DNA of 64,000 nt, taken from contig NZ_JACEFB010000015.1 of assembly GCF_013694095.1 (NCBI RefSeq), forward strand, positions 1 to 64,000. The letters run 5' to 3'. Numbering within the stretch: the stretch's first letter is position 1; each line of letters starts with the position of its first letter. The position numbers were made by a program, and so were the translations under genes. This DNA comes from Thermogemmata fonticola. Its GTDB lineage: Bacteria; Planctomycetota; Planctomycetia; Gemmatales; Gemmataceae. Under the pieces are notes generated by a model. That model saw nothing but the letters and a program-made list of their open reading frames with translations. It was not told where the DNA came from and did not search any database. This document shows, piece after piece, positions 41,299 through 58,263 of the stretch.

Positions 41299-41438
41299 AA
41301 AATGTGGCTCCTTGCAGTGCCGCCGGACATTGCCCGCCTCTTCAACCCCTGCATGGCCACCTATTCAGGAAGAAGGGGGTGTAAAAGACAAAGGGGGCAA
41401 GTGACAATTCCTGGTCCGTTCATCCCGGAGGTGTTCCG

Positions 41439-42128
41439 ATGTGCGGCTTTCGGCTTGTGCTGGTGCTGAGCAGCCTAGTAGCCGGTGCGGCCCTGTGCGC
41501 GGCGGCCCCGCCAGGTGCAGGCAAATCACGGCCCGCAGGCCGGCCGGGCGAGGTCAATACGCCCCCGGCCAAAGGCGAGCGGTTTCCCGACCGGCTCAAG
41601 GTCGGTGACCTGGCCCCGGATTTCGTCCTGTCCGATCCTACCGGGAAGAGAGAGGTTCGACTCTCCAGCTTCCGCGGCCAGCGGCCAGTGGTCTTGATCT
41701 TTGGCAGCTTGACCTGACCACCTTTCCGTCGCCAGTCTGGCGACCTGGAGCGGCTGTACCAAACGTACAAGGACCAAGCGGAATTTTTCCTGATTTACAT
41801 CCGCGAGGCCCATCCGGACTCCCTCCTCTATGTCCCTCAAGACAGCGAGGGAACAGAGGAGGGCGACGAGATACTGATGAAATTGGGTCAAACGAACACC
41901 CTGGCCGAGCGCAGCGAGCGGGCCCAGCAGTGCGTAGCCACTTTGAAACTTTCGATCCCGGCCCTGGTGGACGGGGAGGACAACCGGGTGAACCGGGCCT
42001 ACGCTGCCTGGCCGGACCGGCTGTACGTCATCGGGAGCGATGGCCGCATTGCCTACAAAGGGGGCCGGGGACCGAGCGGCTTCCGACCCGCCGAAGTCGA
42101 ACACTGGCTGAAAACTCACCTTCCCTGA
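41439..42128 (+). CDS. Deiodinase-like redoxin, predicted selenoprotein (UGA = Sec93)
   Basis: A single frame of 230 codons interrupted only by TGA at 41715. Residues 1-25 are a signal peptide (VLVLSSLVAGAALCAAA). The redoxin core starts VGDLAPDFVLSDPTGKREVRL, then VVLIFGSLT-[TGA]-PPFRRQ. FGSxT(U/C)PPF is the active site of iodothyronine-deiodinase-like thioredoxin-fold proteins, where bacterial homologues carry Cys or Sec. Coding continues in frame (LERLYQTYKDQAEFFLIYIREAHPD, then VNRAYAAWPDRLYVIG and GGRGPSGFRPAEVEHWL), and a SECIS-like hairpin follows the TGA. Start ATG is 6 bases after GGAGGT. It is expected to act as an extracytoplasmic redox enzyme; substrate unknown. The alternative, a nonsense-mutated gene, is less likely. 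Confidence 0.85.
41715..41744 (+). promoter_or_regulatory. Bacterial SECIS-like hairpin after the UGA codon
   Basis: TGA at 41715-41717 is followed by GTCGCCA (41728-41734), loop GTC, and TGGCGAC (41738-41744). The perfect 7-bp stem has a G as first loop base, and the loop starts 17 nt after the TGA, inside the usual distance for bacterial SECIS elements that bind SelB. Read as AGUCU, the apical part resembles the AGGUCU apical loop of the E. coli fdhF element. Confidence 0.75.
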
Positions 42129-42331: not shown

Positions 42332-43381
42332 ATGAGTAACGGGAGCAATGGCGGTTGCCAGGCCTGTGGGCGGCAGGGGGTGTGGTCGAAACTGGGGAGT
42401 TGCGTGCGCTGCATGCGTATCGCGTGGTGGGGGACTGTAGTCGCCTGGCTTGGGGTCGTGGCGGCTTTTATGGCGGCAGCCCCGTCGGTGCTTGGTTTGG
42501 CAGCGTTGGGAGTAGCTGGGCTATTCAGCGTGCTTTGGTTGGCTCACTGGGGGGCCTTTGTAGGCAAGAACGTGGCCTCTATCCGGCAACTGGGGAATGC
42601 CCTGGGTCAGCCCTTGGGCCGTCGCGACCTGTTGCGATTGGCTGTCCATCAGGCGGGCGCCGCTCTGATCCTGGTCTGGGGGCAGGGAGCCTTTGGGCGT
42701 GTGCGGGGGGATGATGATGTCATCCCACCGGGGGATGATGATGTCATCCCACCACCCGGTCAAGACGAGCAGATCGATGACCCTCCTGGCTGCGGGCCAC
42801 TTCGGGTGAGGGTGAGAGCAACAGCCAGGGCAGCTAATGCACAGGCTGCCTGCAATGAAGCCAGACTACGGCTCGACCAGAGAATATTTTGGGTCATCCG
42901 GAATTGCCATCAATATTGTGCCAGGGACAACAATGATCCAAACTGCAGAAGTCGGGAGTGTGTCTGTCTTCAGATTGCGGACGTGGTGCGCTGTGGCCCA
43001 GCAAGAAGAGATCCTCAGCAGGGCGATTTTGTCTGTACCTGTGAAGGAACAATTCACATCATTTGCCACTGCCTCCAAGATACATGTGGGGTCTTGGGAC
43101 CCATCTTGGTCGCCGGAGCTGAAGCATGCAATGCAAATCAAAATAGAGCCCTGCAGGATGCTTTGGCCAGCCTGCAGCAGGCTGCACAAGCGGAATGCGA
43201 TAAGCGTTGCACGGCGCGAAATCGTCACTGCGCGGTCCTAGGACAGCGATGTGTGTGCGCAGGGATAAACCGCCTGGGCCAGCCGGAGTGCAGACACCGA
43301 ACCGAGATCGATGGCGAGGGTAACAGGCGCCATTGCTACCAATGCTCAGCAACCTACCAACTGAGGTGCCGGTGCTCCTAG
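42332..43381 (+). CDS. Cys-rich membrane/Tat-like protein
   Basis: 349 residues. Residues 9-27 contain CxAC and CVRC pairs (C9, C12, C24, C27), a small zinc ribbon. Two membrane helices follow (about 32-50 and 53-72). At 97-98 is a twin arginine in GRRDLLRLAVHQAGAALIL, a Tat-signal-like segment in the middle of the protein. An 18-bp duplication encodes DDDVIPP twice. From residue 150 on, over twenty cysteines appear in CxC and CxxxC spacing (CRSRECVCLQ; HCLQDTCG; CSATYQLRCRCS). The second half is less GC-rich. GGGGAGG precedes the ATG. No family recognised; possibly a disulfide-rich or metal-binding exported domain. Confidence 0.7.
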   Translation: MSNGSNGGCQACGRQGVWSKLGSCVRCMRIAWWGTVVAWLGVVAAFMAAAPSVLGLAALGVAGLFSVLWLAHWGAFVGKNVASIRQLGNALGQPLGRRDLLRLAVHQAGAALILVWGQGAFGRVRGDDDVIPPGDDDVIPPPGQDEQIDDPPGCGPLRVRVRATARAANAQAACNEARLRLDQRIFWVIRNCHQYCARDNNDPNCRSRECVCLQIADVVRCGPARRDPQQGDFVCTCEGTIHIICHCLQDTCGVLGPILVAGAEACNANQNRALQDALASLQQAAQAECDKRCTARNRHCAVLGQRCVCAGINRLGQPECRHRTEIDGEGNRRHCYQCSATYQLRCRCS

Positions 43382-57799: not shown

Positions 57800-57921
57800 G
57801 TAGTCGGGGCGGACTGTCCAGGTGCGGTCAAAACGGGACGGGGCTGCGCCCCACGCGCAGCACAGGAAAGGATCGACCGGCCCGTCCGGCAACCTGGGTC
57901 CGAGGCCCCGAACGACTCAGA

Positions 57922-58112
57922 TCATGACGGGCAGGTCTTCTGGCTTTCGGCTCGTGGCGAACCTGTCGGCGGCCTTCCCATGACCCGCAGGTCACAGTGG
58001 CGTGCATGCCGAGGGTTCTGGCCGATCACAGCAGCGGCCCTGCGCCGGATTCGCACCGGCTTCCCTCTTGCCTCCCCGATCCGCAGACCGGGGAACCCGT
58101 CATGCTAGCGCT
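57922..58112 (-). promoter_or_regulatory. Cobalamin riboswitch
   Basis: Read on the minus strand, the hallmarks are in order: GGTTCCCCGG in the 5' arm, GGGAAGCCGGTGCGAATCCG, the AGGGCCGCTGCTGTGA core, CATGCACGCCACTGTGACC (B12 box region), GGGTCATGGGAAGG and the 3' end AAGCCAGAAGACCTGCC. This is the conserved cobalamin aptamer. The first downstream gene on that strand is the DUF1559 gene (start 57767); the OPT transporter lies upstream, ending at 58264, so it is not the regulated gene. Confidence 0.93.
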
Positions 58113-58263
58113 TCGTTGTACATCCCCGACGGGAGTCTGGCCAGAGCGTCTCTGCGGACCCAGCCGCCCTCGGCGAACAGGTCCAGGGGCAGACAGGGAC
58201 AGGAGGAGTACGCCGACATCCGCCCGAGGGGAAGGAGGCAGCAGGACGAAGGGGACGGAATGC

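What the first reader, a model, noticed from the sequence alone, without database searches (positions are those of the whole stretch)
41439..42128. Predicted selenoprotein: deiodinase-like redoxin with in-frame UGA at the catalytic position
An uninterrupted 230-codon frame has exactly one stop, TGA at codon 93. It falls inside FGSLT-UGA-PPFR, where deiodinase-like redoxins carry the catalytic Cys or Sec (FGSxT(U/C)PPF). The conserved family sequence continues in frame on both sides, and a correctly placed SECIS-like hairpin follows. If right, the organism makes selenocysteine, and standard gene callers would report two truncated proteins here.
Basis: partly seen in the sequence, partly recalled or inferred. 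Interest (0 to 1): 0.88.

Follow-up and report, generated by a model that had tools for sequence, protein, structure and literature searches.

The report
Bacterial deiodinase-like selenoprotein with SECIS hairpin
This planctomycete gene uses a UGA codon, normally a stop signal, to insert the rare amino acid selenocysteine into the active site of a peroxiredoxin-like enzyme related to the vertebrate thyroid-hormone deiodinases; it is a real but ordinary member of a selenoprotein family that has been known from bacteria since 2005.

Summary
Confirmed. Frame 41439-42128 (+) holds one in-frame TGA (codon 93, 41715-41717) before its terminal TGA; the read-through matches Pfam T4_deiodinase (E 8.5e-32). 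The genome carries tRNA-Sec, selA, selB and selD. In 163 homologues the aligned codon is TGA (142) or Cys (21), never anything else. All 25 order-level genomes with a strong TGA homologue have selB; G050, which has the Cys orthologue of the closest clade, lacks selB and tRNA-Sec. A 7-bp hairpin 17 nt after the TGA meets the bacterial SECIS rules and covaries (97.5% paired, 0/500 shuffles); Cys homologues lack it. One double change alters two amino acids together (R98S, D102Y) and is found in two separate clades, which RNA pairing explains. The AlphaFold model is closest to mouse Dio2 and Dio3 (Z 21.0, 19.8), then peroxiredoxin AhpE (Z 17.2). A Dio proton-relay histidine is missing, so a peroxiredoxin-like reductase is likelier than a deiodinase. 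Not found in the papers searched: the family's spread in Planctomycetota (90 of 294 genomes) and a second-cysteine swap: helix Cys 149, Cys at U-2 9, both 0, neither 5. New member of a known kind.

The parts
41427..41431 (+). Shine-Dalgarno-like GGAGG, 7 nt before the ATG
   Evidence: Read from the sequence; function inferred.
41439..42128 (+). Deiodinase-like selenoprotein gene, 229 residues read through, with a likely N-terminal signal peptide (residues 1-22, judged by eye)
   Evidence: T4_deiodinase E 8.5e-32; AlphaFold2 mean pLDDT 88.3.
41715..41717 (+). UGA selenocysteine codon, residue 93, in FGSLT-U-PPF
   Evidence: Aligned residue is U in 142 and C in 21 of 163 homologues.
41728..41744 (+). 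Bacterial SECIS hairpin, GTCGCCA-GTC-TGGCGAC
   Evidence: Covariation in 17 Sec homologues, 97.5% of cells paired, 0/500 shuffles; 42.9% paired in Cys homologues; energy.
41811..41813 (+). Codon of invariant His125 (His202 of mouse Dio3), in the EAH motif
   Evidence: H in 163 of 163; alignment to 4tr3.
41931..41933 (+). Codon of Cys165, proposed resolving cysteine for Sec93
   Evidence: Inferred from mutual exclusion with Cys at U-2; helix 155-168 in the model.
42126..42128 (+). Terminal UGA stop codon
   Evidence: Close homologues end within a few codons of here, at TAA, TAG or TGA.

Best explanation
The gene encodes a selenoprotein of the bacterial deiodinase-like family (PF00837, thioredoxin fold with peroxiredoxin-like features). 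During translation SelB, carrying Sec-tRNA(Sec), binds the hairpin at 41728-41744 and decodes UGA 93 as selenocysteine. Shown by sequence: conserved UGA/Cys column, full Sec machinery, covarying SECIS. Inferred: the protein is exported, and Sec93 works as the attacking residue of a peroxiredoxin-like reductase (hydroperoxide or other electrophile). The oxidised Sec would then be resolved by Cys165 on a later helix, and that bond reduced by a cellular thiol system. The confidence given is for the selenoprotein itself; for the peroxiredoxin-like role it is about 0.6 and for Cys165 as resolving residue about 0.5.
For: tRNA-Sec 74.9 bits and ARAGORN; selB 396 bits, selA 533 bits, selD 291 bits, all over curated cut-offs. 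U/C column in 163 sequences, reaching Chloroflexi, Alpha- and Betaproteobacteria. selB in 25/25 strong TGA genomes versus 19/30 Cys-only, Fisher p 5e-4, not corrected for relatedness. Cys-orthologue genome G050 lacks selB and tRNA-Sec. SECIS covariation, with GTAGCCA..TGGCTAC in two separated clades. Third-position excess of changes on both sides of the TGA. Fold: Dio2 Z 21.0, Dio3 Z 19.8, AhpE Z 17.2. Mutually exclusive second Cys: helix 149, proximal 9, both 0, neither 5.
Against: No direct proof of Sec insertion (no peptide). The total folding energy of the 51-nt stretch is not lower than codon-preserving shuffles (z -0.75), so the SECIS case rests on position, covariation and the contrast with Cys forms. 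The cysteine swap has only 4 independent changes on the tree (sign test p 0.125), and 5 sequences have neither Cys. The substrate is unknown, and the distance from Sec93 to Cys165 could not be measured because the tools give no coordinates.
Confidence: 0.95

Rival explanations
1. The TGA is a recent nonsense mutation or sequencing error, and the gene is broken.
For: A standard code gives two short ORFs; one relative (L027/L059) does look decayed, with an extra TAG.
Against: TGA is in the same codon in 142 homologues over several phyla; downstream protein identity of 60-70% with third-position excess.
Confidence: 0.01
2. UGA is read as a standard amino acid such as Trp or Cys by a reassigned code or suppressor, not as Sec.
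For: Only that the frame is open under such a code.
Against: The genome has a tRNA-Sec and selA/B/D; UGA also ends this gene; TGA occurs only at the catalytic column.
Confidence: 0.01
3. It is a selenoprotein, but a true dehalogenase (deiodinase-type reductive removal of halogen from an aromatic compound) rather than a peroxiredoxin-like reductase.
For: PF00837 membership and closest fold Dio2/Dio3; Tyr120, Glu123 and His125 conserved; Arg210 present, aligning with Arg275 of Dio3.
Against: The proton-relay residue His219 of Dio3 is Thr152 here and His in only 6 of 163; Arg210 is Arg in only 58 of 163; the DGW of the Dio loop is absent in the window protein.
Confidence: 0.12

Closest known systems
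Bacterial deiodinase-like selenoproteins of the Sargasso Sea (Zhang et al. 2005, PMC1088965)
   Same: PF00837, Sec and Cys forms side by side, bacterial SECIS within the coding region.
   Different: Found there as 4 metagenomic Sec sequences; reviews list the motif as UxxC, whereas here U+3 is Phe, Tyr or Val in 163 of 163 and the candidate resolving Cys lies in a later helix.
Vertebrate iodothyronine deiodinases Dio1-3 (4TR3, 9H48)
   Same: Fold, TUPPF active site, YI.EAH motif.
   Different: His219 equivalent and DGW loop missing; SECIS in the coding region rather than the 3' UTR; the proximal Cys of Dio1/Dio3 is Leu91 here.
Peroxiredoxins of the AhpE/Bcp type
   Same: Overall fold (AhpE Z 17.2; AhpC-TSA and Redoxin hits).
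   Different: Sequence identity is only about 20%, and PF00837 scores far higher.
Selenoproteins of Planctomycetes (PMC4807772)
   Same: Complete Sec machinery in planctomycetes such as Gemmata obscuriglobus.
   Different: That paper's main text does not mention deiodinase-like proteins; its supplements could not be read.

Membership tests
Bacterial selenoprotein gene | In-frame UGA aligned with Cys of homologues | tested here: met
   142 U, 21 C, nothing else in 163.
Bacterial selenoprotein gene | SECIS: loop 3-9 nt, stem 4-16 bp, G in the first two loop bases, spacing 16-37 nt, energy at or below -7.5 kcal/mol (rules in PMC13188914) | tested here: met
   Loop 3, stem 7, G first, spacing 17, -11.0 kcal/mol.
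Bacterial selenoprotein gene | selA, selB, selC, selD in the genome | tested here: met
Bacterial selenoprotein gene | Sec found in the protein | not testable with these tools
   Needs mass spectrometry or 75Se labelling.
Deiodinase-like family PF00837 | Match over the curated cut-off | tested here: met
   110.8 bits against a cut-off of 27.
Deiodinase-like selenoproteins as tabulated in reviews | UxxC motif | tested here: not met
   U+3 is F 151, Y 11, V 1 in 163; the Pfam and fold criteria of the family are still met, so the listed motif seems not to define it.
Iodothyronine deiodinase (enzyme) | Proton-relay His219 of Dio3 | tested here: not met
   Thr152 in the window protein.
Iodothyronine deiodinase (enzyme) | Deiodination of iodothyronines | not testable with these tools
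   Needs an enzyme assay.
Two-cysteine-type peroxiredoxin mechanism | A resolving Cys partnered with the attacking residue | tested here: inconclusive
   Mutually exclusive Cys positions, but only 4 independent changes.

The most novel reading that the evidence does not exclude
Deiodinase-like selenoproteins are a major, expanded redox family of Planctomycetota, in which the resolving cysteine has moved repeatedly between the position two before Sec (as in Dio1 and Dio3) and the helix after the active site (Cys165 here). The same relocation could bear on how Dio2, which lacks the proximal Cys, is or is not re-reduced.
Probability: 0.4. Interest if true: 0.5.

Novelty: new member of a known kind. 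Interest (0 to 1): 0.4.

Why it matters
Standard gene calling splits this gene and its relatives in two, so the family is probably under-annotated: 90 of 294 sampled Planctomycetota genomes carry a homologue, nearly all with one TGA. The covarying SECIS is a clean case of RNA structure constraining protein residues. The cysteine swap makes the reducing half-reaction of the deiodinase family testable in simple bacterial proteins.

Tried and rejected
Gene neighbourhood: no conserved neighbours within the flanks of 15 relatives, so no operon-based clue to function. Codon-preserving folding test: not significant for the window. A first scan of named genomes with the single protein found nothing; the profile scan worked. 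An early alignment used the wrong strand for minus-strand loci and was redone. Nonsense mutation and code reassignment were considered and rejected. The structural distance between Sec93 and Cys165 could not be read, as no coordinates are returned. The contrast of selB in 25 against 30 genomes is not corrected for phylogeny.

Full report
Observation. The frame starting at ATG 41439 has one internal stop, TGA at 41715-41717 (codon 93), and ends at TGA 42126-42128. Standard calling gives a 92-aa and an 83-aa ORF. Read through, the protein matches T4_deiodinase at 110.8 bits against a cut-off of 27.

Sec machinery. The window's genome (4.81 Mb, 97% complete) has tRNA-Sec over the Rfam cut-off and by ARAGORN, SelB with full-length coverage, SelA and SelD, the last in a 775-aa ORF with an N-terminal oxidoreductase-like extension. 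It has a single PF00837 gene. Over the order, all 25 genomes with a strong TGA homologue have selB, against 19 of 30 with only Cys homologues (Fisher p 5e-4, not corrected for relatedness; counted, test). In the window's own clade one genome, G050, has TGC instead of TGA, and neither selB nor tRNA-Sec was found there. This is what a Sec-to-Cys switch on loss of the trait would leave.

Homologues. In the first 30 loci every TGA in intact copies falls in the column where others have Cys. A profile scan of named genomes gave relatives from Gemmatales and other Planctomycetota, Chloroflexi, Alpha- and Betaproteobacteria and a Pedosphaera MAG. A phylum-wide search found homologues in 90 of 294 genomes, nearly all with exactly one TGA. 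In the combined set of 163 sequences column 93 is U in 142 and C in 21; no other residue occurs there and no TGA occurs elsewhere. Changes between the window gene and its relatives are concentrated at third codon positions on both sides of the TGA.

SECIS. The hairpin GTCGCCA-GTC-TGGCGAC at 41728-41744 meets the published bacterial SECIS rules (rules; values). Among 17 Sec homologues 97.5% of cells pair, 16 cells carry changes on both sides, and none of 500 shuffles reaches either value; sliding the partner by one base drops pairing to 44-47%. In 7 Cys homologues pairing is 42.9%, no better than shuffled. The change from GTCGCCA..TGGCGAC to GTAGCCA..TGGCTAC turns Arg98 to Ser and Asp102 to Tyr together, and is found in two places separated by starred branches (L057, and L052 with L074). 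Pairing in the RNA explains this coupling directly. Other clades place a different hairpin 16-22 nt after the TGA. The total folding energy alone is not unusual against codon-preserving shuffles.

What it does. The AlphaFold model (mean pLDDT 88) is closest to mouse Dio2 (Z 21.0) and Dio3 (Z 19.8), then to the peroxiredoxin AhpE (Z 17.2). Tyr120 and His125 are invariant and Glu123 nearly so, matching Tyr197, His202 and Glu200 of Dio3. The Dio3 proton-relay His219 (role in PMC12025243) is Thr152 here and His in only 6 of 163, and the DGW of the Dio loop is absent in the window protein, so thyroid-type deiodination is unlikely; a peroxiredoxin-like reductase is the better guess (inference). Relatives are fused to EF-hands, and one also matches the CMD (AhpD-like) family weakly, just under the cut-off; this would fit a redox role, possibly outside the cytoplasm (inference).

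Resolving cysteine. Dio1 and Dio3 have a Cys two residues before Sec that has been proposed as resolving (PMC12025243). The window protein has Leu91 there, but Cys165 in the helix 155-168. Over 163 sequences 149 have a helix Cys and no proximal Cys, 9 the reverse, none both, 5 neither. The proximal Cys changed 4 times independently on the tree; the helix Cys went the opposite way in 3.5 of these on average and never the same way (p 0.125). This is suggestive, not proven.

Known or new. Bacterial deiodinase-like selenoproteins were described in 2005 (PMC1088965), and Sec use in planctomycetes is known (PMC4807772). The window gene is a new member of that kind. The reviews' UxxC motif does not fit any of the 163 sequences here. 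The library searches found no paper on this family in Planctomycetota, though only openly licensed papers are held.

Noticed in passing
window 57913-58115 (-): Cobalamin riboswitch, 101.3 bits, the only Rfam match in the window.
   Followed up: no
L022 1051-2124; L020 1210-2094; L033 835-3114; L043 532-2121; L042 703-2946: Sec-containing deiodinase-like domains fused to EF-hand calcium-binding domains; L042 also shows a CMD (AhpD-like) match just under the cut-off.
   Followed up: partly
L027 / L059 (Gemmatales bacterium SKYB77): A copy with an extra in-frame TAG and lost conserved residues, apparently a decaying selenoprotein gene in a genome that still has selB and tRNA-Sec.
   Followed up: no
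L014 1384-3711 (-): SelD is the C-terminal part of a 775-aa protein with an N-terminal pyridine-nucleotide oxidoreductase-like region (by eye).
   Followed up: no
G073 (same genus as the window's genome): Has selB and tRNA-Sec but no homologue of this gene, so other selenoproteins probably maintain the trait there.
   Followed up: no
window 42332-43381 (+): Downstream Cys-rich protein with only a sub-threshold DUF3624 match.
   Followed up: no
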